NCBI RefSeq assembly: GCF_017084525.1
Contig: NZ_CP070950.1
Location: forward strand, 3,038,001 to 3,102,000
DNA: 64,000 bases
Direction of reading: 5' to 3'
Origin: Conexibacter sp. SYSU D00693
GTDB lineage: Bacteria > Actinomycetota > Thermoleophilia > Solirubrobacterales > Solirubrobacteraceae
The position numbers were made by a program, and so were the translations under genes. The notes under the pieces are model-generated. The model saw nothing but the letters and a program-made list of their open reading frames with translations. It did not search any database and was not told the origin of the DNA. Positions 103 through 27,444 of this stretch are shown here, one piece after another (within the stretch, counting starts at the first letter, position 1; every line of letters begins with the position of its first letter).

Positions 103-767
103 CCGGCGCGCTGGTCGCGGCGACCGCCCTCGCCGCCTGCGGGGAGGACGCGCCGCCGGCCACCGTCGCGCCGTCCGCGCCGGAGGTCGCGCCCGCGACC
201 GCGCCGGCGACCCCGGCGCTGCGGGCCGCCTGTCGCGAGGGCGCCGCGACGGTCCGCGAGCCCGTGCGGTGCCCGCTCGTGGTGCCGGCCACCGGCGCGG
301 GCTACCGGCGGCCGCGGATGTTCGACCTCGACGGCTGCACGTACCTGCTCGACCTCGAGGCCCGCGGCGTGCGGGCCCGCAACGCCCCGTTCCACGTCCT
401 GCTCGGCGGCCGCTGCCGGCCGTTCGACCTGCGCACGCGCCACGGCCGCTGGCCGGTCGCGTCCGTCCGCGACGACCTGCGCGTCGTCGGCCGCGCGCCG
501 CAACGCCCAGGCGGGGGCGGAGGCCAGCAGGTGCCGCTCACCGTCCTCGGTCGCCCGCGCGTCCTGGGCCGGCCGGCGCTGCTCGTGCGCGCGGCGCCGT
601 ACCCGGCCGGTGGGATGCACGGCGGCCATGTCCTGCTGGTGCACAACGTCGATGGCGCGGGCTACGTCGTCAGCGCCCACACCCTGCCCGAGGGCCGCAC
701 GCCGGCGACGCCCCAGCTCGTCGCGACGCTCGTCGACGTCGCCGAGCGCTCCCGGCCGCTCGACTAG
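87..767 (+). CDS. Putative secreted lipoprotein, unknown function
   Basis: A 226-residue protein. The N-terminus has a short hydrophobic stretch ending in a lipobox (Leu-Ala-Ala-Cys near residues 15-18), followed by a Pro/Ala/Thr-rich linker to about residue 45. This predicts a lipid-anchored extracytoplasmic protein. The remaining ~180 residues contain four further Cys and no motif I recognise. The GTG at 87 is chosen because it places the signal sequence correctly. The gene converges on the mce operon, and its last 4 bases overlap the last mce gene. A lipoprotein beside an mce operon could be functionally linked, since mycobacterial mce operons include lipoproteins, but it is on the opposite strand and that link is inference. 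Confidence 0.7.
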   Translation: MLRALAGALVAATALAACGEDAPPATVAPSAPEVAPATAPATPALRAACREGAATVREPVRCPLVVPATGAGYRRPRMFDLDGCTYLLDLEARGVRARNAPFHVLLGGRCRPFDLRTRHGRWPVASVRDDLRVVGRAPQRPGGGGGQQVPLTVLGRPRVLGRPALLVRAAPYPAGGMHGGHVLLVHNVDGAGYVVSAHTLPEGRTPATPQLVATLVDVAERSRPLD

Positions 768-2179
768 GGCGCCGCGGGCTTGAGCTTCGGGAAGCGGCCG
801 GTGTCGCCACCGGCGGTGTAGGGCTCCTGCTGCAGGCACGGCGGCGCGCCCGGGCCGAGGGCCGGCAGGTTCAGCGCGTTGGACGTGTGGCTGCAGTCGA
901 AGGCCTCGCGCACGCCGCGGTCCTTCTCGCGCGCCTCGTTGCCCGGTGAGGGGTACGGGTTGGCGCGGTTCGTCGCCAGGCGCTCGGGGAAGAGCGCCGT
1001 CGCCTCGTTCCACAGCGGCGTCGTGAGGCGCAGGTAGTGCGCCTCACGGCCCGAGGCGGTGGGGGCGATCGGCTCGGTCGCCGCGGCCACCGACGGCCAC
1101 GAGGCGGTGAACTGGCGGCGGTAGTCGTCGAGGAACGACGCGACCGGGCGCACGTGGCGCGACAGCGGGTCGAGGCGGTCCATCAGCGGGCCGGCGGCGC
1201 GCACGATCGACGTCGCCGCGGGCACGCCCTCCTTCGCGGCGCGGATCGCCGGGCGGATGTCGCGCGAGACCGCGCGCAGGTCGTCGCCCAGCACGGCGCT
1301 GCGCTCGAGCGTGGAGCGCAGCATCCGGCCGACCGGCCGCAGGTCCTCGAGCGGGCCGACGATGTCCTTGGAGAGGGTCTGGGCGCTGGCCGACGAGGCG
1401 CGCAGCGCCGACATGAACGACGGCAGCACCCGGACCGTCGCCCGGAGGTCGTCGGTCTGCGCGGCGGTGGTGCGCAGCACCTCGTCGCCGGCCTGGACGA
1501 GCTCCTGCGTGGCCTCGTCGCGCTCGCCGACCGTCCCGAGGACGGTGCCCGCGTCGCGCACGAGCTGGCGCACCGCGCGGCCCTGGGCGTCCATGGTCGC
1601 GAGGAGGTCGCCGCCGTCCTGGGCGAGGCCCGGCAGGTGGCCGACGGCGTCGTTGAGGTCCTGGCCCCGGCCGTCGAAGGCCTTCTCCCAGCTCTGCAGC
1701 CAGCCCTGGAGGTTGCGCCGTGACGGCGCGTCGAGGGCCTGGAGGACCTCGTCGAGCTCGACGGTCGGCTGCACCTGGCCGCGGGCGAGCGTGCCGCCCT
1801 CGGGCAGCGGCCTGGCCGACTTGTGGCCCGGGGTGAGCTCGATGTACGTCTCGCCGAGCAGCGTCTTCTGGCGCGCGACGACGCGCGTGTCGGACGGCAG
1901 GGGCGCGACGGTGCGCTGGAGCTCGAGCGTCGCCCGCGTGCGGTCGCCGTCGCGGCGGTGCTTGACGACCTTGCCGACGGGGACGCCGCTGATGCGCACG
2001 TCGGCCTGCTCGGAGAGCTGCGTGGCCTCGTCGAGCAGGACGTCGACCCGGTAGCCCTTGGGCTTGAGCGGCGAGGCGCCGCCGAAGCTCAGCCACAGGA
2101 AGAGCAGCAGCCCGAAGCAGGACAGCGCGAAGCCCACCATGGTGAGGACGCGCCCGACGGTGAACCCGGTCTTCGGCAT
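764..2179 (-). CDS. MCE family protein, sixth gene of mce operon (mceF position)
   Basis: A 471-residue protein with one N-terminal membrane helix (about residues 10-32). The MCE/MlaD beta-barrel domain follows (about 40-120), with the typical 'VRISGVPVGKV' segment. A long helical region rich in Arg/Leu/Asp extends to about residue 390. MCE proteins form hexameric tunnels that pass lipids or sterols between membrane and cell envelope, powered by a YrbE/MceG ABC system. This is the last gene of six consecutive mce genes, two bases after the fifth. It ends by overlapping the convergent lipoprotein gene by 4 bp. The helical tail should form part of the extended needle-like tunnel described for Mce1; this is inferred from family knowledge. 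Confidence 0.93.
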   Translation of the reverse strand: MPKTGFTVGRVLTMVGFALSCFGLLLFLWLSFGGASPLKPKGYRVDVLLDEATQLSEQADVRISGVPVGKVVKHRRDGDRTRATLELQRTVAPLPSDTRVVARQKTLLGETYIELTPGHKSARPLPEGGTLARGQVQPTVELDEVLQALDAPSRRNLQGWLQSWEKAFDGRGQDLNDAVGHLPGLAQDGGDLLATMDAQGRAVRQLVRDAGTVLGTVGERDEATQELVQAGDEVLRTTAAQTDDLRATVRVLPSFMSALRASSASAQTLSKDIVGPLEDLRPVGRMLRSTLERSAVLGDDLRAVSRDIRPAIRAAKEGVPAATSIVRAAGPLMDRLDPLSRHVRPVASFLDDYRRQFTASWPSVAAATEPIAPTASGREAHYLRLTTPLWNEATALFPERLATNRANPYPSPGNEAREKDRGVREAFDCSHTSNALNLPALGPGAPPCLQQEPYTAGGDTGRFPKLKPAAP

Positions 2180-2181
2180 GG

Positions 2182-3456
2182 CTACTTGGGGCAGATCCCG
2201 GCCTGGGCGGCGGGGGCGAGGAGGGGCAGGAGCAGCTGGCCGACCTGGACGTTGGAGCAGCTGAAGACGAGCTGGCCGCGCCAGCCGCCGCCGTTGGCGT
2301 CCTGGGTGGAGGTCATGGAGTTGACGTTGTGGGCGAACCAGGCGAGCCAGAAGAGGTAGCCCTCCTCCTTGCCCTCCGGGTTGTGGACCAGCTCGTTGGT
2401 CACGTAGCGCAGGACCGAGAACGCACGGTTGAGGTCCGGCGTCAGGGGCTGGAGGTTCGTGAGCGCGGTCTGCAGGTTCCCCGCCAGCGGCTGGGCCTCC
2501 CGGCTCAGGCCGCGCAGCTGGCCGAGCGCCGGCGTGCCGGTCCTGGCGAGCGGGCGCAGGTCGTCGAGCGCGCCGCGCAGCTTCTCGGCGGTCGGGGTCA
2601 GGCGCTGGAGGGCCGGGCGCAGCTCGCGGGCCAGCGGCCGCGCGGTCGCGAGTGCCGCGTTGGCCTCGTCGAGCGTGCCCGGGAGCTTGGACAGCGCCGA
2701 GCGCAGCGCCGCGTCCTGGGAGCCGAGCGCCGCGAAGGTCGTGTTGCCCTGCTCGACGAGCTTCGTGAGGTCGCCGCCCTGGTCGGCCAGGCGGTCGGAG
2801 ACGTCGGCGAGGCCGCTGACGAGCCGGCGCAGCTCGACGCGTCGCGCGGCGATCGCCTGGGTGAGCTCCTTCGTGCGGGCGAGCGCCGGCTGCGAGGTCC
2901 TCAGCAGCGAGCGGAGGTTCAGCGCCCGGTCGCCCCGCAGGCCGTCCCCGAAGCCCTGGAGCAGGCCCTTGACGTAGCCGCGCACGTCGGTGTCGAGGCC
3001 GGCGAGGACCTCGTCGACGTTCACCGAGGGCGTGGCGCGGTCGACCGGCAGGACGTCGTCCTCACCGAGGACCGGGGCGCGGGAGGTGCCCGGGTCCATG
3101 TCGATCGTCATGTCCTGCAGGCCGGTCTTGGGGCGCACGAGGACCTTGGCGTCGGCGTGCACCGCTCCGAGCTCGCGGCGCTCGATGTCCAGCCGCACGA
3201 CCGCGCGGCCGTTGCGCAGCTCGACGTTGCCGATCTCGCCGACCTGGACGCCCGCGACGGTCACGGTCTGGCCCTGGCCGGGCGTCAGCGCCTGGCCCGT
3301 GGGCAGCTCGACCTCGACGGAGTAGACGTCGTCCCACGGCCAGCGCAGGCGCTGGTTGTCGAGCACGATGCCGCCGACCGCCGCCGCGATCACGAGCAGG
3401 CCGAAGATCGCCGCGAAGGGGACGATGTAGCGCCGGATCTGGGTCCGCAGCGTCAC
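2182..3456 (-). CDS. MCE family protein, fifth gene (mceE position)
   Basis: A 424-residue MCE protein. Its membrane helix lies at about residues 12-32, and the MCE domain (about 45-125) contains 'VTVAGVQVGEI'. A long helical coiled region follows, then a short C-terminal domain with a Cys near the end. I start it at the GTG at 3456, which overlaps the upstream stop by 4 bases (GTGA). The longer open frame upstream lies inside the mceD gene and is out-of-frame shadow. In mycobacteria the gene at this position often encodes a lipoprotein, but no lipobox is visible here; the N-terminus is a plain signal anchor. It should be one subunit of the same hetero-hexameric lipid tunnel as its neighbours. 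Confidence 0.92.
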   Translation of the reverse strand: MTLRTQIRRYIVPFAAIFGLLVIAAAVGGIVLDNQRLRWPWDDVYSVEVELPTGQALTPGQGQTVTVAGVQVGEIGNVELRNGRAVVRLDIERRELGAVHADAKVLVRPKTGLQDMTIDMDPGTSRAPVLGEDDVLPVDRATPSVNVDEVLAGLDTDVRGYVKGLLQGFGDGLRGDRALNLRSLLRTSQPALARTKELTQAIAARRVELRRLVSGLADVSDRLADQGGDLTKLVEQGNTTFAALGSQDAALRSALSKLPGTLDEANAALATARPLARELRPALQRLTPTAEKLRGALDDLRPLARTGTPALGQLRGLSREAQPLAGNLQTALTNLQPLTPDLNRAFSVLRYVTNELVHNPEGKEEGYLFWLAWFAHNVNSMTSTQDANGGGWRGQLVFSCSNVQVGQLLLPLLAPAAQAGICPK

Positions 3457-4976
3457 TTCGCGGCCCTCCGGTCGGCCTGGCGGGCCTTGGCCAGCGCGCT
3501 CCTGAGCTCCTTGCGCGTGTCGAGCTTGCGCAGGCGCTTGATCGCGCCGCTCACCGCGGAGCTGCGCTCCTTGCGCGACAGGCCCAGGCGCTTCTGGGCC
3601 GGCGCGGGGGCGCTGTCCGCCCGCAGGTCCGGCAGCGCCTGCTCCTCGCACTTGGCCTCGGGCGCGAAGGGCGGCTCGGTGTTCGGCGTCCACCGCGGGC
3701 GGGCCCCGAGCAGCGGCTCGGACGTCAGGGCGTAGAGGTCGCCGATGCCCGGCAGGGCCGTGGTGACGAGGTTCTCGGCGCCGCCGGCGAGGTAGCGGAT
3801 CTGGCCGCCGTTGCCGTCGAAGTTGCCGCCGGAGGACGCCAGGCCGGCGCCCATGCTCGTCAGCTCGCGCCAGATCGGCAGGCCCGTCGAGAGCTTGCCG
3901 TCGTCGACCTGGGCGTTGAGCACCGGGACGACGCTGCGCGAGACGCAGGTGGAGATCGGCGTGACGCGGCCCAGCAGCTCGTCCAGCTGCGGGGTGACCG
4001 TCTCGAGCGAGGCGAGCGCCGGGCGCAGCCGGCGCGTCAGGGCGGGCAGCTCGGCGTCGCCCAGCAGGCCCGAGCCGGCGCGGACGAAGGGTCGCGCCTC
4101 GTCGATCGTCGACGGCGCCGCCCGCAGCGCCGGGCGCAGCGTGTCGGCGAACGTCCGCAGCGCCGGCAGCGTGGCCCGGACCTCGCGCAGCGCCGGCGTC
4201 GCGGTCGACACCGTGCGGTCCAGCGCGCGCAGGGAGGCGCCGAGGTCCTGGCGCGAGGAGCCCAGCGCCGTCACCGTGCGCGCGAAGCCGGTGACGAGGT
4301 CGGCGAGCTCGCGGTCGCGGACGGCCAGGGCACGCGAGACCTGCGCCTGGCGCTCGACGAACCGGCCGAGGTCGCCGGGCCGCGCGCCGCGCATCGCCTC
4401 GGCGGTGAGCGCGGTGCCCTGGAAGGCGCCGGTCCAGTCGCGCACGCCGGCCCGCACGGCGTCGGCGCCGCCCTCGTCCAGGGCCTTCGTGAGGCCCTCG
4501 ACGGTCGCCTTCAGGTCCTGGCGCGAGTCGCGCTGCAACGTGCTGAGGACCTCGTCGAGCTGGACGGGGATGGCCGTCTGGGTGAGCGGGACCGTCGCAC
4601 CGTCCGCGAGCTCGGGCTGACCCGGGGAGCCGGGGCGGACGTCCACGAAGAAGTTGCCCTCGAGGAAGAGCCGCGGGCGGATCTTCATCGTGGCGTCGCG
4701 GTGCAGCGGACGGCCTTCGTCCTGCATCCGCAGCGTCACCTCGGCGGTGCCGCCCGGCCCGGGCTCGACGGCCTGGACCTTGCCGACGTCGACGCCCGCG
4801 ATGCGCACCGGCGTGCCCTTCTTCACCTCGGTCGCGGCCGTGCGGAAGATCGCCTTGACCTCGTAGTGCGAGCCGAAGGGCAGCGTGAGCTTCGTGAAGC
4901 CCGCCCAGCAGACGACCGCGACGACCACGAGGGTCAGGGCGCCGGCCTTGAACGGGGAGATGCCGCGCGCCCTCAT
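3453..4976 (-). CDS. MCE family protein, fourth gene (mceD position)
   Basis: A 507-residue MCE protein starting at ATG 4976, which overlaps the previous gene's stop (ATGA). An N-terminal membrane helix (about 8-28) precedes the MCE domain, which contains 'VRIAGVDVGKV' near residue 55. A helical region follows, then a Lys/Arg-rich C-terminal tail of about 60 residues (RKER, KRLRKL, KARQADRRAAK). The basic tail is long compared with its neighbours and could contact anionic wall polymers; that is speculation. The start is set by the signal anchor, because upstream sequence in this frame is the shadow of mceC. Confidence 0.92.
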   Translation of the reverse strand: MRARGISPFKAGALTLVVVAVVCWAGFTKLTLPFGSHYEVKAIFRTAATEVKKGTPVRIAGVDVGKVQAVEPGPGGTAEVTLRMQDEGRPLHRDATMKIRPRLFLEGNFFVDVRPGSPGQPELADGATVPLTQTAIPVQLDEVLSTLQRDSRQDLKATVEGLTKALDEGGADAVRAGVRDWTGAFQGTALTAEAMRGARPGDLGRFVERQAQVSRALAVRDRELADLVTGFARTVTALGSSRQDLGASLRALDRTVSTATPALREVRATLPALRTFADTLRPALRAAPSTIDEARPFVRAGSGLLGDAELPALTRRLRPALASLETVTPQLDELLGRVTPISTCVSRSVVPVLNAQVDDGKLSTGLPIWRELTSMGAGLASSGGNFDGNGGQIRYLAGGAENLVTTALPGIGDLYALTSEPLLGARPRWTPNTEPPFAPEAKCEEQALPDLRADSAPAPAQKRLGLSRKERSSAVSGAIKRLRKLDTRKELRSALAKARQADRRAAK

Positions 4977-6352
4977 CGGCGGGCCTCCGCCGGCGGGCTC
5001 GTCGTCTCCGTGCGGCCGGGCTGGGTGCCCGGGGCCGGGCCGCCGCCCGACGCGGTGAAGTACGTCTCGTTGCCCGGCTCGCACTCGCCGCCGGCGCCCG
5101 TGTCCTCGTCGATGAGCCGGTGGTTGTTGGCCGCCGGCCGCGGGCTCTGGAGGTCCTCGGAGAGCTCGACGATCGGGATGAAGCGGAACCACGTGCCCAT
5201 CCGGTCGCCCTCGCTGACGACCGACGGGACGTTGCGGCCCCACAGCCCGAGGTAGTTGCAGCGCGTCTGCATCGGCGCGATGGTCTGCAGGGCGTGGTCG
5301 ACGTCGGCGACGACCGGCGTCAGGTTCGTCAGCGAGCGGGTCGTCGACGGCCGGGTCGCGAGCGTCCGCAGGGCGTCGAGCGTCGGCTGCAGGTCGCGCG
5401 CCAGCGGCCGCGCGTCCCGGAGGGCGGGGCCGGCCGCGCGCAGCCCGTTCGCCAGCCGCGTCGCGCTCGTCGACAGCACCCGCACGCCGGGGGCGGCGTC
5501 GCGCAGCAGGCCGGCGGCCTGGGCGAAGATCGGGCGGGCGGCGCGGAAGCCGGCGGTCGAGACGCGCGTGACCTCGGGTGCCTGGGCGAGCGTCGCGTCG
5601 ACCGCGGCGTCCTCGTCGGCGATCGCCGAGAACGTCCGGGCGCCGGCGCGCATGAGCGAGCCCAGCGGCTGGCTCACCGGGGCGAGCGCGGCGGCGGCCG
5701 ACTCGGCGCTGCGCAGGAAGCCGGGGAGGTCGGTCCGGGGAGAGCGCAGCAGCGCGGCCACCGAGCGCAGGCTGCGGCTGGTGCGCGGCAGCTCCTCGAT
5801 CGTGCGCCCCACGTCGGCCTCCCGGCCGGCCAGGCCGGTGCCGAGGTCGCGCACGACGCCCTTGAGCGCGTCGCGCGTCGGCGCGTCGAAGGCGGAGATC
5901 GCGTCGTCGAAGTCGACGACGCCGGTGCTCTGGCGCAGCCCGATCTCCCCACCTGCGGGCAGGTCCCGCGTGCTGTCGCCGGGGCGCAGCTCGACGTACT
6001 TGAGGCCGAGGTTGGAGCGCAGGCGCACCATCGCGCGGGTGTCGACGGGCAGTGGCTCGGCGGCCTTCTCGAGCGCGAGCTGCAGGCGGGCGGCCGGCGT
6101 GCCGTCCGGGCCGGGCTCCGCCTCGACCTCCGTCACGACGCCCACGCGCGAGCCGCCGATGCGCACGTCGTTGCCGGGCACGACCTGCGCGGCGTCCGGC
6201 ACCACGACGTCGATCTTGTAGGTCGGGACGAACGGCAGGCCGCTGTTGGCGTTGTAGGAGAGGAACACCGCCACCACCACGACGAGCACGGTGAGCGCCC
6301 CGACGAGGACGGGGTTGGCGACGATGGAGCTCTGCGGCCGGCGGACGCCCAT
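4973..6352 (-). CDS. MCE family protein, third gene (mceC position)
   Basis: A 459-residue MCE protein. The membrane helix is at about residues 15-33 and the MCE domain at about 45-130, with 'VRIGGSRVGVV'. A helical tunnel region follows, and a C-terminal part contains two Cys and Thr/Pro-rich residues. It starts at ATG 6352, one base before the stop of mceB (6353), so the two genes are effectively contiguous. It belongs to the same transcript as the other mce genes and should be one of six different subunits of the complex. Confidence 0.93.
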   Translation of the reverse strand: MGVRRPQSSIVANPVLVGALTVLVVVVAVFLSYNANSGLPFVPTYKIDVVVPDAAQVVPGNDVRIGGSRVGVVTEVEAEPGPDGTPAARLQLALEKAAEPLPVDTRAMVRLRSNLGLKYVELRPGDSTRDLPAGGEIGLRQSTGVVDFDDAISAFDAPTRDALKGVVRDLGTGLAGREADVGRTIEELPRTSRSLRSVAALLRSPRTDLPGFLRSAESAAAALAPVSQPLGSLMRAGARTFSAIADEDAAVDATLAQAPEVTRVSTAGFRAARPIFAQAAGLLRDAAPGVRVLSTSATRLANGLRAAGPALRDARPLARDLQPTLDALRTLATRPSTTRSLTNLTPVVADVDHALQTIAPMQTRCNYLGLWGRNVPSVVSEGDRMGTWFRFIPIVELSEDLQSPRPAANNHRLIDEDTGAGGECEPGNETYFTASGGGPAPGTQPGRTETTSPPAEARR

Positions 6353-7909
6353 CTACGGCCCCAGGAGGAGGTCGAGGAGGCGGTCCACGGCCCCGCCGGA
6401 GGGCTGCTGGCCCTGCGCGGGCTGGTCCTTCTTGCCGTCGAGCAGGCCCTTCGTGCCCTCGACGAGGTCCTTGACGGTGTCCTGGAGCGCCTTGGGCAGC
6501 TCCTGGATCGCCTTGGGCAGGTCCTGGACGGTCTTCGGGAGGTCCTTGAGCAGCCCGTCGAGCGTCCCGGGCTTCTCGGGCTCCTTGGCCGGGGCCTGCG
6601 GCGCCGGCGTCGTGACGGGCGCGGCGGGCGCCTGCTCGCGCTCGGGCGCCGACTCGCTCTTGGCCTTCGCCCTGCGCTGCCTGGCCGGCGTGGCGGAGCG
6701 TCCGCCCTCGGCGAAGTGCGCGTCGCAGCTCTTGATCGTGACGACCGCGTAGAGGTTGCAGGCGTCCACCGCCTGCAGGTACGCGGGCAGGATGTGGGAG
6801 ACGCTGTCGTAGCGGGCCGTCGCCGTCGTGGCGTAGTAGACGAAGCGCAGCAGGCCCTCGACCGCGCCGCGGTCGCGCATCGACTCGAAGAGCTCGGCGA
6901 GCTGGGCGCCGGCGGGCCGTGCGGCGGTGGCGAAGCGGGCCAGGCGGCGGACCTGCGGGGCGACCGGGCCGACGGCGCGGCGGCCCGCGCGGGCGGTCGT
7001 GCCGAGCTGGGTCAGCGTCGGCTGGACCTCCTTGGCGAACGGCCCGAGGCGGTCGACCAGGCGCTCGGCGGCGGGCGCGGCGGCGGCGAGGTCGGCGGCG
7101 ACGGAGGTGCCGTCCTCGCCCAGCGCGCGCAGCTGCGCCAGCGACGGCCGGGCCTCGTCGAGCAGCGCCGGGAGGCCGCGGACCGTCTCGCGCAGCTCGG
7201 CGGAGCGGCGGCTCGTCGCGCCGGTGGCGCGGCGCGCGTCGCGCACGAAGTCGGCGACGTCCTCGCGGCGGTCGGCCAGCACGTCGACGACGCGATCGGC
7301 GTCGCGCAGCAGTGCCTGGATCGTGCGGCGCTCGCCGTTGACCTGCGTCAGCAGCTTCTCGGTCTCGGCGAAGGCCGGGTCGGCCTCGCGGATCGTGGCG
7401 TTGAGGTCCTCGGCGCGGCCGGCCAGGCCGCCGCCCAGGGCGCTGACCAGGAGCGCGGTCTGCGTCGTGGTCGGCTCGCGCAGGGCGCCGAGCACGAGGT
7501 CGAGGTCGATCGGCGTGGTGGTCTGGTCCAGGCCCATCGTCGGGACGGCGTCGCCGCGCGCCGCCAGCGGCTTGGCGTCCGCCGTGCCGGGCGTGCACTG
7601 CACGAACTTCTCGCCGATCAGCGACTGGGGCTGGATCGTGCAGCGCGCGTCGGCCTTGAACGGGCCGAACTCCTCGTCGACGCGCATCTGGATGCGCGCG
7701 CGGCGGCCGTCGAGCGTCACGTCCTCGACCTGGCCGACCTTCGCGCCGGCGACCTTGACGTCCTGGCCCGGCACGAGGAAGCCCGCGTTGCGGAACAGGG
7801 CGTCGACGCGGTACCCCGACGCCGACTCGTCGTCGCCGGCGCCGACCGCCAGGAACGTGCCGCCGCCGGCGACGAGCGCCACGGCGCCCGTGGTGAGGAG
7901 CCGCCTCAC
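6353..7909 (-). CDS. MCE family protein with amphipathic C-terminal repeats (mceB position)
   Basis: A 518-residue MCE protein. It has a short N-terminal hydrophobic segment, an MCE domain from about residue 32 with 'VKVAGAKVGQV', and the usual long helical region. The last ~120 residues differ from its neighbours. A Pro/Ala/Glu-rich linker leads into tandem copies of a seven-residue 'DLPKxxQ'-like unit, then a hydrophobic end. Such a repeat should form amphipathic helices that could bind lipid or a partner. The start is a GTG at 7909 that overlaps the mceA stop (GTGA). It is the second gene of the operon. Confidence 0.92.
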   Translation of the reverse strand: MRRLLTTGAVALVAGGGTFLAVGAGDDESASGYRVDALFRNAGFLVPGQDVKVAGAKVGQVEDVTLDGRRARIQMRVDEEFGPFKADARCTIQPQSLIGEKFVQCTPGTADAKPLAARGDAVPTMGLDQTTTPIDLDLVLGALREPTTTQTALLVSALGGGLAGRAEDLNATIREADPAFAETEKLLTQVNGERRTIQALLRDADRVVDVLADRREDVADFVRDARRATGATSRRSAELRETVRGLPALLDEARPSLAQLRALGEDGTSVAADLAAAAPAAERLVDRLGPFAKEVQPTLTQLGTTARAGRRAVGPVAPQVRRLARFATAARPAGAQLAELFESMRDRGAVEGLLRFVYYATTATARYDSVSHILPAYLQAVDACNLYAVVTIKSCDAHFAEGGRSATPARQRRAKAKSESAPEREQAPAAPVTTPAPQAPAKEPEKPGTLDGLLKDLPKTVQDLPKAIQELPKALQDTVKDLVEGTKGLLDGKKDQPAQGQQPSGGAVDRLLDLLLGP

Positions 7910-9222
7910 GGCGCGTTCCCCGGATCGCAGGACCCGCCCTCGGGGACCTGGTTGTTGCCGACGCCCGGGATCTCGCGGTACGCGCCACCCGGGCAGCGCC
8001 GGACGTTGCCCTTGCGGGCCAGCGGCAGCGCGCCACCCAGCGCCGAGAGGCCACCGCTGAGGCTCAGGTTGTTGGCGATCGGGGCGACGCGCCCGTAGAG
8101 GCCGTTGGCGTCGTAGCTGTTGACCTGCGAGGCGCCGAAGCCGCTCACCACGCCGTGGAAGACGTCGGGCAGGTAGGGCAGCGCCTTGGAGACGATCGGC
8201 AGGACGTCGTCGACCGCCTTGGTCGTCGCGTCGAACGCCGGCAGCGCGGTGGTGCGCAGGCCGGGCATGTCCTGCAGCGTCGAGGTGAGGTCGGGCAGGA
8301 GGGCGCGGACGTCGTCGATCGCCGGGCCCGAGCGCTGCAGCAGCGGCTGGAGCTCGCGCACCAGCGCCGCGGCGCGCGGGGCGACGGGCTGCAGCTCGCG
8401 CGCGGCGGGCCGCAGCGCCGTGAAGGTCGTGCCCAGGTCGCGCAGCGTGCGCGTGCCCTCGGCGAGGGTGCCGGGGGCACGGCGCAGCACGCCGGTGAGC
8501 GCGGCGCGCTGGTCGGCGAGCTCGCGGGCGGTGCTCGCCGCGCCGCCGAGCGCGGCTTCGAGGTCGCGGTCGCGCGACGCGACCGCCCCGACGACCGAGG
8601 CGCTCTGCACGAGGAACTGCTGGAACGCGCGGCTGTCGCGGTTGACCTCACGCGCCAGGAGGTCGAGCTGGCCGAGCGCCGGGCTCAGGGCCGTCAGGCC
8701 CTTGTTGGCCTCGCCCTCCTGGCCCTCGAACACCGCGCGCTGGTTGCGCAGGAGGTCCTGCGCGGCGCTGCGCGTCTGCGTGTCGAGCGTGCTCAGCACG
8801 CTGTCGATCTCGACGACCGAGCGGCTGGCCGACGCGGGCAGCACCGCGCCGCTGTCGAGCTCCGGGTTGCTGTTGGGCCCCGGGGCGAGCTGGACGAAGC
8901 GGTTGGCGACGCTCGACAGCGACGCCACGCGGACCTCGGCGCGCGTGCCCTCGTGCAGCGGGGTGAGGTCGCCGTCGGTGATGGTGACGTCGACCTCGGC
9001 GAGGTTGTCGTCGTCGAGGCGGATCGCGTCGACCGTCCCGACCCCGACGCCGCCCACCTTGACCTCGTCGCCCTTGACGAGCTGGCTGGCGTTCTCGAAG
9101 CGCAGCTTGAGCCGGTAGTCGTCCTGGCCGCCGACGAGCACGACCACGGCGACCGCGGCGAGCACGAGCAGGGTGGCGAGGGGGACGATCCGGCGCAGCA
9201 CGGGACGAGGGCGTCCGGGCAC
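7906..9222 (-). CDS. MCE family protein, first gene of mce operon (mceA position)
   Basis: A 438-residue MCE protein. It has a signal-anchor helix (about 10-32), an MCE domain with 'VKVGGVGVGTV' near residue 60, a long helical region, and a C-terminal part with two Cys. I place the start at GTG 9222 because a GGAG ribosome-binding site lies about 6 bases upstream and the signal anchor follows directly. The longer open frame runs into the divergent regulator. It is the promoter-proximal gene of the six. The yrbEA/yrbEB permease genes that normally precede mceA are not here; the next genes upstream are a divergent TetR regulator and hemB. Confidence 0.92.
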   Translation of the reverse strand: MPGRPRPVLRRIVPLATLLVLAAVAVVVLVGGQDDYRLKLRFENASQLVKGDEVKVGGVGVGTVDAIRLDDDNLAEVDVTITDGDLTPLHEGTRAEVRVASLSSVANRFVQLAPGPNSNPELDSGAVLPASASRSVVEIDSVLSTLDTQTRSAAQDLLRNQRAVFEGQEGEANKGLTALSPALGQLDLLAREVNRDSRAFQQFLVQSASVVGAVASRDRDLEAALGGAASTARELADQRAALTGVLRRAPGTLAEGTRTLRDLGTTFTALRPAARELQPVAPRAAALVRELQPLLQRSGPAIDDVRALLPDLTSTLQDMPGLRTTALPAFDATTKAVDDVLPIVSKALPYLPDVFHGVVSGFGASQVNSYDANGLYGRVAPIANNLSLSGGLSALGGALPLARKGNVRRCPGGAYREIPGVGNNQVPEGGSCDPGNAP

Positions 9223-9248
9223 GCGCTCTCCACCGCGCACCGGACACG

Positions 9249-9287
9249 TTGTCAGACACGCTATCCCGGCGCCGCCGCGAATGACAA
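9249..9287 (-). promoter_or_regulatory. Candidate mce promoter with an inverted repeat
   Basis: On the minus strand, TTGTCA (9287-9282) and TAGCGT (9263-9258) are separated by 18 bases and resemble -35 and -10 elements; this would give a leader of about 28 nt before mceA. TTGTCA at 9249-9254 on the plus strand and TGACAA at 9282-9287 form a perfect 6-bp inverted repeat flanking the -10. This makes the region a candidate operator for the divergent TetR protein, although 27 bp between arms is wide for that family. Confidence 0.45.
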
Positions 9288-9332
9288 ACGGCAACCGGCG
9301 GACGACCCTGGCGCCCGGCGGCCGACCGCGCC

Positions 9333-9338
9333 TAGGAT
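9333..9338 (+). promoter_or_regulatory. TAGGAT -10-like hexamer of tetR
   Basis: TAGGAT ends 8 bases before the ATG at 9347. That spacing would place the transcription start at or next to the start codon, giving a leaderless mRNA. A weak GAGG also lies just before the ATG. Confidence 0.4.
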
Positions 9339-9346
9339 GCCGAGGC

Positions 9347-9973
9347 ATGCCGTCGGTGACCCGCTCACGCTCGGCCGGCCGGGAGCGCCGGGACGGCGTC
9401 GAGCGCGACGTCCTGGCGGCGGTGGAGGGGCTGCTCGCCGACGGGGCGTCGTTCACGGAGCTGGGCGTCGCGCGGATCGCCGACGCCGCCGGCATCGCCC
9501 GCTCGACGTTCTACGTCCACTTCCGCGACAAGGTCGACCTCCTCGTGCGGCTGACCGAGGCGGCGACGGAGGAGCTCTTCGCCGACGCGCGCGGCTGGGT
9601 GCGCGGCGACGAGGGCGACGGCCTGGACGGCCTGGTCGCCGCGATCCTGCGGATCGTCCGCCAGTACCGACGCCACGGCGCGCTGCTGCAGGCGCTGCAC
9701 GAGGTGGCCGCCTACGAGCCGACCGTCGCGCGGTTCTGGCGCGCGCGGATCGAGGACTTCGTCGCGGCGCTGGCCGACCAGCTGCGGGTGCGCCGGGACG
9801 CGGGCGAGACGCACGCCGACCTCGACCCCGACCTGAGCGCGCGGATCATCGCCTGGTCGGTCGAGCGCAACGTCACCGACCAGGTCACCCACCGCCCGGC
9901 CGGCGAGGACGAGGCGTTCGCCGCGGCGCTCGGGCGCCTGGTGTGGCGCACGCTCTACCGCGAGCCGGCCTAG
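9347..9973 (+). CDS. TetR/AcrR family transcriptional regulator
   Basis: A 208-residue regulator. The helix-turn-helix lies at about residues 35-60 ('ARIADAAGIARSTFYVHF'), typical of TetR DNA-binding domains. A helical ligand and dimerisation domain follows. I start it at ATG 9347, which gives the normal TetR length; an open frame extends further upstream into the mce promoter. It is divergent from the mce operon, and TetR-type regulators commonly control adjacent mce operons in response to lipids, so it is the likely mce repressor (inference). It could also regulate itself, because the 124-bp intergenic region holds both promoters. Confidence 0.85.
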   Translation: MPSVTRSRSAGRERRDGVERDVLAAVEGLLADGASFTELGVARIADAAGIARSTFYVHFRDKVDLLVRLTEAATEELFADARGWVRGDEGDGLDGLVAAILRIVRQYRRHGALLQALHEVAAYEPTVARFWRARIEDFVAALADQLRVRRDAGETHADLDPDLSARIIAWSVERNVTDQVTHRPAGEDEAFAAALGRLVWRTLYREPA

Positions 9974-21056: not shown

Positions 21057-22931
21057 TCACCGGCCGTCCCTGGTCGGCGCTGAACCCCTGTGCGCGCCCG
21101 ACCCCTCCAGCGCCGCCTGCAGCGTGTCCGCGTCCCAGTCGCCGTCGTGGCGCACGCCGTTGATGTAGAACGTCGGCGTCCCCTCCGCGCGGCTGTCCTC
21201 TGCGCCACGCACGTTGAGGGCGATGCGCCCGGAGGCGACGTGCTCCTGGACGTCGTCGACGAAGCGGTCGAGGTCGAGGCCCAGCGCCTGGGCGTGGTCG
21301 ACCATGCGGCTGAGGTCGACCGGCTCGTCGTCGCGCAGGAGGCGGTCGTGCATCTCCCAGAACCGGCCCTGGGCGCCGGCGGCCTCGGCGGACTCCGCGG
21401 CCAGCCGGGCGCCCGGGTGGACGTCCTCGAGCGGGAGGTGGCGCCAGACGAAGCGCAGCCGGTCGCCCAGGCGCGCGCGCAGCTCGTCGACGACCTCCGC
21501 GCTGCGCCCGCAGTAGGGGCACTCGTAGTCGCCGTACTCGAGGAGCTCGAGCGGGGCGTCGGCGGGCCCGCGGACGTGGTCGAGCTCCGGGCGCACCAGG
21601 TGGGCCAGGCGCGGCGGGCCGGTCTCGGCCGGCGCCTCCCCGCGGCTGCTGAGCCGGAAGACGACGGTGGCCAGCACCGCGGCGAGGACCGAGGCGACCA
21701 GGACGCCGACCTTCGCCTCGTCGCGCAGCGCCTCGTCCTCGAAGGCGAGCTCGGCGACGAAGAGCGAGACGGTGAAGCCGATGCCCGCGAGCGCGCCGCC
21801 GCCCAGCAGCTGGCTGCGCCGGACGCCCTCGGGCAGCGGCCCGATCCCGGCCCGGACCGCGAGCGTCGTGCTGGCCACCACGCCGAGCAGCTTGCCGGCG
21901 ACCAGGCCGACGACGATGCCCCACGTGATCGCCGAGCCGGCCGCCGCCTCGAGCATCTCGCCGTCGATCGCGATCCCGGCGTTGGCCAGCGCGAAGAGGG
22001 GCACGACGACGAAGCTCGACCACGGGTGCCACAGGTCCTGGAGGCGCTCGTTGGCCGAGACGGCGTCGACCACGCCGCGGCGCGTCATCCGCGCCAGCTG
22101 CGGCGACGGGTCCAGGCGGAACAGCCGCGTGAGCCGGGCCGCGAGCTCGACGTCGGCACGGCGCGGCGGGTGCACGTCGACGAGGACCCCGACGACGACG
22201 CCGGCGAGGGTCGGGTGGATGCCGGACTCGACCATCGCGATCCACAGGGCGACGCCGACCACGACGTACGCCGGGCCGCGCCACGAGCCGACCCGGTTGA
22301 CGACCAGCACCAGCGGCGCGATCGCCACCGCCGCCACGAGCCACGCGAGCTCGACGCCCGACGAGTAGAAGACGGCGATGACGACGATCGCGCCGATGTC
22401 GTCGACGATCGCCAGCGTCAGGAGGAACACCCGCAGCGAGCTCGGCGCGGTGGGCCCGACGAGCGCGAGCAGGCCGATGACGAAGGCGATGTCCGTCGCC
22501 ATCACGATCCCCCAGCCGTCGGCCCCCGGGCCGCCGGCGTTGACGGCGAGGTAGAGGCCGGCCGGGACGAGCATCCCGCCCAGCGCCGCCAGCGCCGGGA
22601 TCAACGCCTTGTCGCGCTCGGTCAGCTCGCCCAGCGAGAGCTCGCGGCGCACCTCCATGCCCACGAGGAAGAAGAAGAAGACCATGAGCCCGTCGTTGAC
22701 CCACCAGTGCAGGTCGTGGCGCAGCTCGTAGCCGCCGAGCGCGAAGGACAGCTCGGTGTGCCAGAGGTCGACGTAGCTGTCCGACGCCGGCGAGTTGGCC
22801 CAGACGAGCGCGAGGACGGTGGCGGCGAGCAGGACGCCCGCGCTGCCTGCCTCGGTGGCGAGGAACCGCTGGACCGGGCGCTGGCGCTCACGGGCCCAAC
22901 GCGTCAGGCCGGCGGGGTGGATGGTGTGCAC
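21057..22931 (-). CDS. Na+/H+ antiporter NhaA fused to a DsbA-like thioredoxin domain
   Basis: A 624-residue fusion. Residues about 20-430 form NhaA, with about 12 membrane helices and the ion-binding Asp pair in 'LAIVDDIGAIV'. NhaA exchanges protons for sodium across the membrane. Residues about 445-624 form a DsbA/thioredoxin-fold domain with the active site CPYC ('DYECPYCGRSAE') and a cis-Pro-like 'EGTPTFYING'. Because NhaA C-termini face the cytosol, the redox domain may be cytoplasmic and sense redox state; this is inference. I choose GTG 22931 because AGGAG lies 7 bases upstream; a longer frame reaches 22985. It is monocistronic. Confidence 0.93.
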   Translation of the reverse strand: MHTIHPAGLTRWARERQRPVQRFLATEAGSAGVLLAATVLALVWANSPASDSYVDLWHTELSFALGGYELRHDLHWWVNDGLMVFFFFLVGMEVRRELSLGELTERDKALIPALAALGGMLVPAGLYLAVNAGGPGADGWGIVMATDIAFVIGLLALVGPTAPSSLRVFLLTLAIVDDIGAIVVIAVFYSSGVELAWLVAAVAIAPLVLVVNRVGSWRGPAYVVVGVALWIAMVESGIHPTLAGVVVGVLVDVHPPRRADVELAARLTRLFRLDPSPQLARMTRRGVVDAVSANERLQDLWHPWSSFVVVPLFALANAGIAIDGEMLEAAAGSAITWGIVVGLVAGKLLGVVASTTLAVRAGIGPLPEGVRRSQLLGGGALAGIGFTVSLFVAELAFEDEALRDEAKVGVLVASVLAAVLATVVFRLSSRGEAPAETGPPRLAHLVRPELDHVRGPADAPLELLEYGDYECPYCGRSAEVVDELRARLGDRLRFVWRHLPLEDVHPGARLAAESAEAAGAQGRFWEMHDRLLRDDEPVDLSRMVDHAQALGLDLDRFVDDVQEHVASGRIALNVRGAEDSRAEGTPTFYINGVRHDGDWDADTLQAALEGSGAHRGSAPTRDGR

Positions 22932-23015
22932 GGGGCGGCTCCTGGGCAGGGGTGGTCGACGCTCGCCGACCAGGCTTCCCGGCACACCGCGCCGGACGGT
23001 AGCGCACCCCGCCGC

Positions 23016-25034: not shown

Positions 25035-25574
25035 ATGCAGACCACGAAGGGCATCGCCGCACTCGCCGCCACGCTGGTCCTCGGGCCCGCGTCCGTCGCG
25101 CACGCGGTGACGAGCAGCCAGTCGATCACCGCGGACGTGGCGCCGACCCTGCAGGCGACCTTCCCGGGCGACTACGCCTGGGGCACGCTGGCCGTCGGCG
25201 CCGGCGGCAACACGTCCAGCGAGCAGACCGTCAACGTCAAGAGCAACGCGGCGTGGGGCGTGAAGGTGTCGTCCGACCTCGCCGACGGGCGCATGAAGGA
25301 GTGGACCGGCGCGGCCTACGTCAGCTCGTCGCCCAAGGTGCTGACGCACGCGCTGACCTGGCGGCTGTCGAGCCTCGGCGGCGCGGCGCAGGGCACGAGC
25401 TTCGCGGCCCTGTCGTCCACCGCCGCGGCGGTCACCACCTCGCAGGCGATCACCGGGGACAGCGGGACCGACGTCGGCGTCACCTACCGGCAGGTCGCGT
25501 CGTTCGCCGATCCCAGCGCGGGCGGCAACGACTACCGCATCGCGGTCACCTACGACGCGGCGCAGGGCTACTGA
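25035..25574 (+). CDS. Secreted beta-rich protein, paralogue A of a surface-protein operon
   Basis: A 179-residue protein with a signal peptide (about 1-24, ending near Ala-His-Ala) and a beta-strand-rich mature domain. It shares strong motifs with the next gene's product: 'SEQTVNVKSNAAWGVKVS', 'DGRMKEW', 'LTWRLSSLGG', and a C-terminal 'YRIAVTYDAAQGY' ending in an aromatic residue. The pattern of Trp-Gly and a terminal beta strand with aromatic end resembles pilin-like, spore-coat-U-like or WxL-type surface domains, but I cannot assign one. ATG 25035 has a GGAG box. It is followed after 6 bases by paralogue B. Confidence 0.75.
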   Translation: MQTTKGIAALAATLVLGPASVAHAVTSSQSITADVAPTLQATFPGDYAWGTLAVGAGGNTSSEQTVNVKSNAAWGVKVSSDLADGRMKEWTGAAYVSSSPKVLTHALTWRLSSLGGAAQGTSFAALSSTAAAVTTSQAITGDSGTDVGVTYRQVASFADPSAGGNDYRIAVTYDAAQGY

Positions 25575-25580
25575 GCGAGC

Positions 25581-26147
25581 GTGCCGCGGCGGCCCCTGAG
25601 CATCCTGGCCGCCGCGGCCGCCGCGGCCGCCGTCGCCCTGCCGGCGCTCCTCGCGCCGGCGCACGCCCACGCCGCGGGCTGCGTGCTGAACATCGGCTCC
25701 TGCCTCGTCGTCACGCCGCCGCCCGCGTCGCTCAACCTGGGCCAGGTCAACGCCGCGACGACGACGACCTCGGCCGAGCAGGTCATGCAGGTCGCGGCGG
25801 GCAACTCGTGGGGGATGCGCATCTCCGTCGACCAGGCGGGCGGCCGGATGCGCGAGCACAACGGCACCTCCTACGTCGCCAGCGGCAAGGTCATGCACCA
25901 CCCGCTGCAGTGGCGGCTGAGCTCGTTCGACGGCACCGCGCAGTCGACGTCCTTCGCCGACCTCTCGACGACGCCCGCCGTCGCGCTCACGAACCGCTCG
26001 ATCACTGGGTGTGTGCTGCTGCTCCTGCTGTGCACCGACATCCCGCTCGGCTTCAGGTTCCGCATGACGACGTCGTTCTGGGACGCCAACGCGGGCGCCA
26101 ACAACTACCGGATCCAGGTCACCTATGACACGCAGCTCGGCTTCTAG
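25581..26147 (+). CDS. Secreted beta-rich protein, paralogue B of the same operon
   Basis: A 188-residue paralogue of the preceding protein, with a signal peptide (about 1-32) and four extra Cys: two in 'GCVLNIGSC' at the mature N-terminus, and two flanking an inserted hydrophobic Leu run ('CVLLLLLC'). These probably form disulfides. Shared blocks include 'NSWGMRISVD', 'GRMREHNGTSYV', 'LQWRLSSFDG' and the terminal 'YRIQVTYDTQLGF'. The GTG start at 25581 follows the previous stop by 6 bases, and its end overlaps the next gene by 23 bases. The two secreted proteins and the membrane-anchored third probably form one surface assembly. Confidence 0.75.
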   Translation: MPRRPLSILAAAAAAAAVALPALLAPAHAHAAGCVLNIGSCLVVTPPPASLNLGQVNAATTTTSAEQVMQVAAGNSWGMRISVDQAGGRMREHNGTSYVASGKVMHHPLQWRLSSFDGTAQSTSFADLSTTPAVALTNRSITGCVLLLLLCTDIPLGFRFRMTTSFWDANAGANNYRIQVTYDTQLGF

Positions 26148-27444
26148 GCGAGCCTTCGGCGCGGCGGTCCTCGCCGGACTCCTCGGTCCCGCCGGCGCAC
26201 ACGCCGCGGGCGGCGGGTTCTGGATCACGCCCGCCCGGATCGACGCGCGCGTCGAGCGCGGGACGCTGCTGGCGCCCGTCGTGGTGGGCAACGACACGGG
26301 CCGGACGCTCGCCGTCACCGCGACCGTCCTGCTCGCCGACCAGGGACTCGACGGACTGCCGACCTGGACGCTGACGCCCGCCGCCGTGCGCGAGGGCCGG
26401 ACCGTCGCGCGGGTGAGCCCGGCGACGTTCCGCCTCGCGCCCCGACAGCAGCGCAAGGTCCGCCTGCGCGTGGTCGGCCGTGCGCCCCGGCGCGGCCGCG
26501 GCACCTACGGCGTGCTCCTGCTCTCGGCCGTCGGCGCCCGTCCGGCCACCGCGAGCCGGTCCTTCGTCTCGTCGCGCATCCGCCTCTCGGCCAACCTCCT
26601 GCTGCGCTACGGCGGGGGCGGCGCCGCCGCGGGCGGCGCCGAGGCGCTGCGCGCCGCGCAGGGTCCGGGCCGCTCGCTCGTCTTCGCCGCGCAGGTGCGC
26701 AACACGGGCGACCTGCACGGCCGGCCGCGGGCGCGCCTGCGGGTCCGTGACCGCGACGGGCGCCTCGTGGCCCGCGCGACGTTCCCGACGGGCAACGTCC
26801 TGCCGGGCGCCCGCCGCGAGCTGACGACGGCGGTGCGGCGCGTGCTGCCGGCGGGCACGTACACCGCGCGCGTGGTGGTCGACCTCGGCGCGCGGCGCAC
26901 GACGCGCGACCTGCGCCTGCGCCTCGTCGCGCCCGGGACCCTGCCGACGCCGGACCTGCGCATCGACGCCCTGCCGGTGCCCGAGGTGGCGCCCGGTGCG
27001 GCGGTGACGGCGGAGGTCGTGCTGCGCAACGCGGGCACCGCCCCGGCGGCCGTCACCGGCGAGGCGGCGCTCGGGCGGCCTGGCAGCGAGCGGCCCGACG
27101 CCCGCGTGCCGGTGACGGGCGCGCCGCTGGCGCCCGGGGGGCGGCTCACCGTCCGGCTGGCGCTGCCGCCGGTGGCGGAGGGCGACCGCCGCCTCACCGT
27201 CACGCTGCGCGACGGCGACCGGACCGTGGCCACGCGCTCGGTGACCTTCCAGGCGCGCGCCCGCGCCTCGGCGTGGACGCGCTTCCTGGACTGGGCGGCG
27301 GCCCACGTCGCCCAGGTCCTGGCGGGGCTCGGGCTCCTCCTCGTCGTCGGCACGCTGCTCGCGGTCGTCCTGGTGCGTCGCGCGCTGCGGCGTGCGCGGG
27401 CGGCGGCCGCGGCGCATCCCGAGCGGGTGCTCGAGCACGTCTGA
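26125..27444 (+). CDS. Membrane-anchored extracytoplasmic protein with chaperone-like/DUF916-like Ig domain
   Basis: A 439-residue protein. A signal peptide (about 1-27) is followed by an Ig-like domain (about 30-140) with 'ITPARIDARVERG', 'VVVGNDTGRTLAV' and 'SPATFRLAPRQQRKVRLRV'. This layout resembles PapD-like chaperones and the DUF916 proteins that partner WxL proteins in Gram-positives. Two further Ig-like segments (about 175-370) lead to one C-terminal membrane helix (about 393-413) and a basic cytoplasmic tail. Its start lies within the end of paralogue B, so the three genes are translationally coupled. It may hold or assemble the two secreted paralogues (inference). Confidence 0.75.
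   Translation: MTRSSASRRAFGAAVLAGLLGPAGAHAAGGGFWITPARIDARVERGTLLAPVVVGNDTGRTLAVTATVLLADQGLDGLPTWTLTPAAVREGRTVARVSPATFRLAPRQQRKVRLRVVGRAPRRGRGTYGVLLLSAVGARPATASRSFVSSRIRLSANLLLRYGGGGAAAGGAEALRAAQGPGRSLVFAAQVRNTGDLHGRPRARLRVRDRDGRLVARATFPTGNVLPGARRELTTAVRRVLPAGTYTARVVVDLGARRTTRDLRLRLVAPGTLPTPDLRIDALPVPEVAPGAAVTAEVVLRNAGTAPAAVTGEAALGRPGSERPDARVPVTGAPLAPGGRLTVRLALPPVAEGDRRLTVTLRDGDRTVATRSVTFQARARASAWTRFLDWAAAHVAQVLAGLGLLLVVGTLLAVVLVRRALRRARAAAAAHPERVLEHV

What the first reader, a model, noticed from the sequence alone, without database searches (positions are those of the whole stretch)
25035..27444. Three-gene surface module: two secreted paralogues plus a membrane-anchored chaperone-like protein
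Two ~180-residue secreted proteins share a dense set of motifs (Trp-Gly, GRM, WRLSS, terminal YRI-VTYD with aromatic end). They are coupled to a protein with a PapD/DUF916-like Ig domain and a C-terminal membrane anchor. The arrangement recalls chaperone-subunit fibre systems and WxL/DUF916 complexes, but there is no usher and no classical WxL motif. It may be an undescribed surface fibre or adhesion complex of this actinobacterial group.
Basis: partly seen in the sequence, partly recalled or inferred. Interest (0 to 1): 0.72.

Follow-up and report, generated by a model that had tools for sequence, protein, structure and literature searches.

The report
WxL-like surface module with different domain
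Three linked genes of an actinobacterium encode two small, probably secreted proteins and a membrane-anchored partner that resemble the WxL surface-attachment complex known from Firmicutes, but carry a different, apparently uncatalogued domain where the WxL domain would sit.

Summary
A (25035-25574) and B (25581-26147) are paralogues (47% over 127 aa); C (26125-27444) has Ig-like regions and a C-terminal membrane helix; the genes are tightly packed. C is a remote WxLIP (DUF916-DUF3324-TM) homologue: a profile of 12 WxLIP-type proteins of the class, with no C-type member, finds it at 1.4e-13. A and B belong to a ~145-residue domain ('S', my name) with no Pfam match over cut-off and no profile-level relation to WxL, though its last strand reads like the published distal WxL motif with Phe/Tyr for Trp. 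Neighbourhood: 16 of 19 C-type genes have an S gene on the same strand within 2.5 kb, none a WxL gene; 7 of 11 WxLIP-type genes have WxL. Seven genomes of one genus have 27-30 S matches each; in the one looked at, 23 of 24 S domains end the protein, often behind hydrolase domains. Best reading: a WxL-like surface-attachment system with S in the WxL seat and C as membrane-anchored partner. No usher or PapD_N match in the genome. Contact, wall binding and donor-strand exchange are untested.

The parts
25035..25574 (+). Gene A: small, probably secreted S-domain protein, 179 aa
   Evidence: ORF and translation; paralogue of B
25113..25568 (+). S domain of A
   Evidence: S-profile match 2.4e-37 (A is itself in that profile); AF2 model of A only pLDDT 50
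25581..26147 (+). Gene B: small, probably secreted S-domain protein, 188 aa, GTG start 6 nt after A; four Cys in two C-x6-C loops, A has no Cys
25674..26141 (+). S domain of B
   Evidence: S-profile match 1.4e-34 (B is itself in that profile)
26125..27444 (+). Gene C: WxLIP-like membrane-anchored protein, 439 aa, start overlaps the end of B by 23 nt
   Evidence: WxLIP-type profile 1.4e-13
26263..26892 (+). C: stretch aligned to the PGBD+HBD (DUF916+DUF3324) part of WxLIP-type proteins
   Evidence: profile match 1.4e-8 for this stretch (profile with L092); hhalign 97.5-97.8% over 217-227 columns
26947..27207 (+). C: third Ig-like region, CARDB match
   Evidence: Pfam PF07705 E 1.8e-5, 25.3 bits against a cut-off of 22.7, residues 275-361; AF2 block means 73-92; Z up to 13.1 to Ig-like domains of GH2 enzymes
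27319..27375 (+). C: likely transmembrane segment, residues 399-417, then a basic tail
   Evidence: mean hydropathy 2.79 over 19 residues; helix in the AF2 model

Best explanation
The module is a lineage-specific, WxL-like surface-attachment complex. C is a membrane protein whose extracellular Ig-like regions (PGBD-like, HBD-like and one more) stand in the cell wall. A and B are exported S domains that sit on the surface and are held or stabilised by C, as WxL domains are proposed to be held by WxLIP. Two small proteins per anchor recalls the commonest Firmicute cluster (two WxL, one WxLIP). In relatives the same S domain is the C-terminal attachment module of large proteins, several with enzyme domains. 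Shown here: paralogy, remote homology of C to WxLIP-type proteins, S as a shared C-terminal domain, linkage and co-occurrence of S and C. Inferred: export, physical contact, wall binding, and the role of A and B as a paired platform.
For: C: WxLIP-type profile without C-type members hits window C at 1.4e-13; none of 2000 shuffles of C reported. hhalign C family vs WxLIP-type set (with L092) 97.5% over 227 columns, best of 100 column shuffles 1.0%. S: A+B vs the six other small ones 93.6%, at most 0.5% in 60 shuffles; the six vs 13 large C-terminal copies 98.6% over 130 columns. Linkage: 16 of 19 C-type genes have an S gene, 0 a WxL gene; of 11 WxLIP-type genes 7 have WxL, 1 S, 3 neither. Co-occurrence in 146 family genomes: S in 19, C in 23, both in 17 (Fisher 2e-15, kinship not corrected). 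Position: 23 of 24 S domains in 20 G017 stretches end with the last residue, the other one residue earlier; 7 of 10 such proteins have a Pfam domain upstream. Precedent: two E. faecium WxL proteins bind their transmembrane partner in vitro (PMC5817068, passages).
Against: S has no profile-level relation to WxL (4.5% over 33 columns). Pfam PF06030 reports neither C at E<=5 nor any of 14 C-type proteins at E<=0.1, and the own genome has no PF06030 match at E<=0.01. B alone reaches only 47% against the other small ones (A alone 92%), and A+B only 27% against the large copies. 3 of 14 C-type proteins were not reported by the WxLIP-type profile at E<=10. Two of the 19 S genomes lack C at the threshold used, one of them (G795) with 30 S matches; 6 have C without S. 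L083 and L084 have no S nearby on their strand. A as single query found nothing outside the own genome. AF2 gave no trustworthy fold for A or region 1 of C.
Confidence: 0.7

Rival explanations
1. Chaperone-subunit fibre: C is a membrane-tethered PapD-like chaperone, A and B are subunits that polymerise by donor-strand exchange.
For: Ig-like regions in C; the two-region C relatives (253-265 aa) have about the size of a periplasmic chaperone (recalled); S ends in a conserved strand-like motif.
Against: No usher and no PapD_N match in the own genome at E<=1, E. coli among the ringing controls; no PapD-like chain among the 10 weak PDB sequence matches of the C family; S also ends large proteins with enzyme domains.
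Confidence: 0.1
2. S is a sorting signal rather than a wall-binding domain: C-type proteins recognise it during or after export and hand the protein to a membrane or wall polymer.
For: Extreme C-terminal position; a TIGR03118 'PEPCTERM_chp_1' family protein carries S at its end; S matches far outnumber C-type matches in one genus (27-30 against 2-4 where C was found).
Against: S also occurs alone as small proteins next to C, with little else to sort; nothing follows S in 23 of 24 cases, so no membrane segment or tail as in known sorting signals.
Confidence: 0.13
3. A and B are unrelated small beta proteins that happen to lie next to a generic Ig/CARDB membrane protein.
For: Ig-like beta proteins give many weak matches.
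Against: Linkage of 16 of 19 genes and co-occurrence in 17 genomes; shuffle controls.
Confidence: 0.04

Closest known systems
WxL / WxLIP (DUF916-DUF3324) clusters (PMC10599100, PMC9772566, PMC5817068)
   Same: Membrane-anchored protein with a stretch homologous to PGBD+HBD; small partner genes beside it, two per anchor here; partner domain at the C-terminus of large proteins in relatives; last strand like the distal WxL motif with Phe/Tyr for Trp.
   Different: S does not match the WxL profile; one W-x-L tripeptide instead of two motifs; no D-x-R-x5-W; a third Ig-like region in C; no large partner in this triplet.
WxL and WxLIP genes of the same class that pass Pfam cut-offs
   Same: Small gene beside a WxLIP-type gene on the same strand.
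   Different: They match Pfam (WxLIP_PGBD over cut-off in 11, WxL in 10 of 149 genomes); the window genes do not, and the own genome has no match to either family at the thresholds used.
Chaperone-usher pili (PapD/FimC)
   Same: Ig-like partner plus small beta proteins (recalled).
   Different: No usher and no PapD_N match in the genome; C has a C-terminal membrane helix.
PEP-CTERM and other C-terminal sorting modules
   Same: Shared C-terminal module on many different proteins.
   Different: S is a ~145-residue domain and nothing follows it; PEP-CTERM anatomy recalled.

Membership tests
WxLIP (DUF916-DUF3324-TM) | PGBD (PF06030) domain | tested here: inconclusive
   Pfam does not report it in C or in 14 C-type proteins at E<=0.1; a profile of 12 WxLIP-type proteins (9 over the PF06030 cut-off) matches C at 1.4e-13
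WxLIP (DUF916-DUF3324-TM) | HBD (PF11797) domain after the PGBD | tested here: inconclusive
   1 of 14 C-type proteins (L011), E 0.06, at the right place; stretch covered by the hhalign match of 227 columns
WxLIP (DUF916-DUF3324-TM) | C-terminal transmembrane helix | tested here: met
   Residues 399-417, hydropathy 2.79; helix in the model
WxLIP (DUF916-DUF3324-TM) | NQIDKxxxYFDLK near the N-terminus (PMC10599100) | tested here: not met
   Absent by eye from the sequence of C
WxLIP (DUF916-DUF3324-TM) | Gene cluster with WxL proteins | tested here: not met
   S genes, not WxL genes, stand beside C-type genes: 16 S and 0 WxL of 19
WxL domain (PF13731) | Match to the WxL profile | tested here: not met
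   No Pfam WxL match in A or B at E<=5; own genome none at E<=0.1; hhalign S vs WxL set 4.5%, shuffles at most 0.3%
WxL domain (PF13731) | Two Trp-x-Leu motifs | tested here: not met
   A and B hold one W-x-L each (WRL), first-Trp column WGV/WGM; 6 of 6 small relatives read WTL there, 2 of them with a second W-x-L; 13 of 13 large copies have no Trp there
WxL domain (PF13731) | Distal motif YXXX(L/I/V)TWXLXXXP (PMC5817068) | tested here: not met
   0 of 8 small, 0 of 24 G017 S domains and 0 of 13 of the class WxL set as Y...[LIV]TW.L; with W/F/Y allowed 1 of 8, 20 of 24 and 0 of 13; shuffles 1 of 12000 for the G017 set (relaxed pattern chosen after seeing the data)
WxL domain (PF13731) | Binds peptidoglycan | not testable with these tools
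   Needs an assay
Chaperone-usher pilus | Usher (PF00577) and PapD_N (PF00345) in the genome | tested here: not met
   No match at E<=1 in the own genome; E. coli among the controls that ring
Chaperone-usher pilus | Donor-strand complementation | not testable with these tools
   No complex prediction offered; model of A too weak

The most novel reading that the evidence does not exclude
S is a new C-terminal surface-attachment domain, not derived from WxL, that took over the partner seat of WxLIP-type proteins in this family and then spread as the display module of a large set of exported proteins (27-30 S matches per genome in one genus), with membrane-bound C proteins as receptors and soluble two-region C proteins as carriers.
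Probability: 0.3. Interest if true: 0.7.

Novelty: new variant of a known kind. Interest (0 to 1): 0.55.

Why it matters
It carries the WxL/WxLIP principle, reported almost entirely from Lactobacillales and Bacillales, into a family of actinobacteria, and suggests that the partner domain can change beyond profile recognition or be exchanged. It gives a first testable idea of how these bacteria may keep exported hydrolases and other proteins on their surface, and a domain that could be added to family libraries to annotate dozens of proteins per genome in one genus.

Tried and rejected
A alone found nothing outside the own genome: 1 of 101 genomes, the own one, and none of 51 pattern stretches of genome contigs; B found nothing in viral contigs (none of 17 stretches); C found no plasmid match. 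PDB sequence searches with C, S and C-family profiles gave weak matches that look unrelated. Foldseek and VIA-align on C matched Ig-like domains of GH2 enzymes and transglutaminases in regions 2-3, which says nothing on function; PapD chaperones are not among the rows shown, but region 1 was barely tested. Foldseek on A had no match at E<=0.001, as expected for a model of pLDDT 50. A first hhalign run with signal peptides gave S-WxL 27% mainly from the signal peptides and was set aside; without them 4.5%. One of 60 column shuffles of the C test gave 99% over 14 columns; on inspection it is an edge alignment of 14 columns, the next best being 0.2%, and a repeat on gap-poor columns with 100 shuffles gave at most 1.0%. 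Three weak S-profile matches in other families of the class (G136, G165, G194; 3e-5 to 6e-4) cover only the first 84-96 profile positions and were disregarded.

Full report
Observation. A and B are paralogues (47% over 127 aa) and the only two matches of A in the 4.43-Mb genome at E<=0.01.

Relatives of C. C alone found 5 other genomes among 101. Profile A2 matched 24 of 399 class genomes at E<=1e-6, own included, and 23 of 146 family genomes at E<=1e-4. Two forms appear: three regions plus membrane helix (window, L009, L010, L011, L012, L075) and two regions of 253-265 aa (L074, L078, L079, L080, two in L081, L083, L084). The own genome has one of each; the second (G000:C1:1972320-1973099) lies beside a 410-aa protein with an HtaA match and a C-terminal S domain.

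C and WxLIP. Of Pfam families only CARDB passes its cut-off in C. In a class sample, 11 of 149 genomes have a WxLIP_PGBD match over the Pfam cut-off and 10 of 149 a WxL match. From I took 12 WxLIP-type proteins (9 over the cut-off, 3 below it). Their profile matched window C at 1.4e-13 and reported 11 of 14 C-type proteins at E<=10, 9 of them at 2.9e-6 or better; L009, L012 and L083 were not reported; none of 2000 shuffles of C was. hhalign, with L092 added to the set, gave 97.5% over 227 gap-poor columns, against at most 1.0% in 100 column shuffles; one shuffle of an earlier set of 60 gave 99% over 14 columns, an edge artefact. So C is a remote WxLIP homologue with an extra Ig-like region; I do not file it as a member, because the NQIDK motif and the WxL neighbours are missing.

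The S domain. Six small proteins beside C relatives align with A and B. Without signal peptides A+B against the other six gave 93.6% (A alone 92%, B alone 47%), at most 0.5% in 60 shuffles. A profile of the eight found the domain at the end of large ORFs, 14 matches in G017 and 8 in G037. With 20 members (A7), 19 of 146 family genomes match at E<=1e-4, seven of one genus with 27-30 matches each; 27 is also the number of candidates scored, so these may be lower bounds. In a phylum sample 4 of 396 match, three of this family and one weakly elsewhere (4e-5). No member of the 20 matches a Pfam family over its cut-off (best HmuY 0.0014, one member). In 20 G017 stretches 24 S domains were found: 23 end with the last residue, one a residue earlier. 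Of 10 such proteins, 7 have a Pfam family at E<=1e-4 upstream of S: M14, M28 and M6 peptidase, ThuA twice, 3-keto-disaccharide hydrolase, LVIVD; 3 have none. An NCBIfam scan of 10 found, over cut-off, TIGR03118 in L151, CocE/NonD hydrolase in L166 (with a sub-cut-off Xaa-Pro dipeptidyl-peptidase match) and OmpL47-type domains in L163.

Linkage. In 25 of the 30 places plus L010 and L169, profile scans found 19 C-type genes (C-type profile better than WxLIP-type) and 11 WxLIP-type genes. Of the 19, 16 have an S gene on the same strand within 2.5 kb (distance between open frames) and none a WxL gene; the others are L082 (contig ends at the gene), L083 (nearest S 3.4 kb off, other strand) and L084 (none). 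L009, L075 and L080 have two S genes, as the window has. Of the 11, 7 have WxL, 1 (L076) S and 3 (L085, L086, L089) neither; L085 and L086 have a small, signal-bearing ORF there that neither profile sees. L025, below the WxLIP_PGBD cut-off, has an S-like gene upstream (1.3e-5). Window, L009-L012, L074, L075 and L079 contributed to the S profile and are not independent of it; L076, L077, L078, L080, L081 and L169 did not. In the family both S and C occur in 17 genomes, S alone in 2, C alone in 6; kinship is not corrected, and some C-only genomes hold WxLIP-type genes with WxL (L088).

S and WxL. Profiles do not join them: 4.5% over 33 columns at the last strand, shuffles at most 0.3%. D-x-R-x5-W is in 10 of 13 of the WxL set and 0 of 21 S proteins (a laxer form covers the other three; it was not run on S). 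On the other side, 6 of 6 small relatives read W-T-L at the first-Trp column (13 of 13 large copies have no Trp), and the published distal motif Y-x3-[LIV]-T-W-x-L (PMC5817068, passages) is met with Phe/Tyr for Trp by 20 of 24 G017 S domains, 9 of 13 large and 1 of 8 small ones (7 of 8 by a loose form; A and B read Y-x3-V-T-Y), against 1 of 12000 shuffles for the G017 set; the class WxL set scores 0 of 13. I set this relaxed pattern after seeing the ends. A diverged WxL is thus quite possible; only structures will tell.

Literature. PMC10599100 (abstract, passages, first part of the results): WxLIP is DUF916-DUF3324-TM; 98 of 179 clusters have one WxLIP and two WxL; AlphaFold2 puts a strand of DUF916 into WxL; WxL almost entirely in Lactobacillales and Bacillales. 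PMC9772566 (passages): two motifs, Asp/Arg before the first Trp. PMC5817068 (passages): non-covalent peptidoglycan binding; two E. faecium WxL proteins bind their transmembrane partner in vitro. Searches: WxL + Solirubrobacter, 0 papers; WxL + PEP-CTERM + sorting, 0; WxL + donor strand, 1, listing only; Solirubrobacter + surface protein + C-terminal domain, 1, listing only; WxL domain with Actinobacteria or Thermoleophilia, 15 of 562 listed, none of these 15 with WxL; WxL domain with Actinobacteria or cell wall anchoring, 15 of 54 listed, 4 with both first terms, of which I saw passages of one. In what I saw this system is not described; the library is open-licence only, so that is weak evidence.

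Mechanism. C anchors in the membrane, its PGBD-like region binds S in the wall, A and B form a paired surface platform, and elsewhere S brings other proteins to the same place. Contact and wall binding are inferred. The family name Solirubrobacteraceae rests on the title of L093, whose contig length equals that of G025:C1, a genome of the window's family.

Noticed in passing
L009:6991-8652 and L010:5193-6677: Two C homologues carry, after the membrane helix, a ComEA-like helix-hairpin-helix domain (HHH_3 9e-20 in L009; L010 by alignment): an extracellular Ig protein with a likely cytoplasmic DNA-binding-type domain.
   Followed up: partly
G000:C1:1972320-1975231 (L074:6339-10042): Second S/C cluster of the own genome: two-region C protein, a 469-aa 'LWACHGP' protein without NCBIfam match, and a 410-aa protein with HtaA (4.2e-5) and C-terminal S. 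(L/M)WACHGP proteins also lie beside two-region C genes in L077, L079, L080 and L081.
   Followed up: partly
25680-26033 (B): B has two loops GCVLNIGSC and GCVLLLLLC, each C-x6-C; A has no Cys. Possibly disulphide-closed loops.
   Followed up: no
21057-22985: One ORF reads as an NhaA antiporter fused to a DsbA/thioredoxin-like C-terminal part (by eye).
   Followed up: no
L085:7613-8077 and L086:6319-6792: Small proteins with an AWTL/NWTL motif before WxLIP-type genes that match neither the S nor the WxL profile: perhaps a third partner type.
   Followed up: partly
764-9495: Row of - strand genes that look like Mce/MlaD-type transporter proteins (by eye).
   Followed up: no
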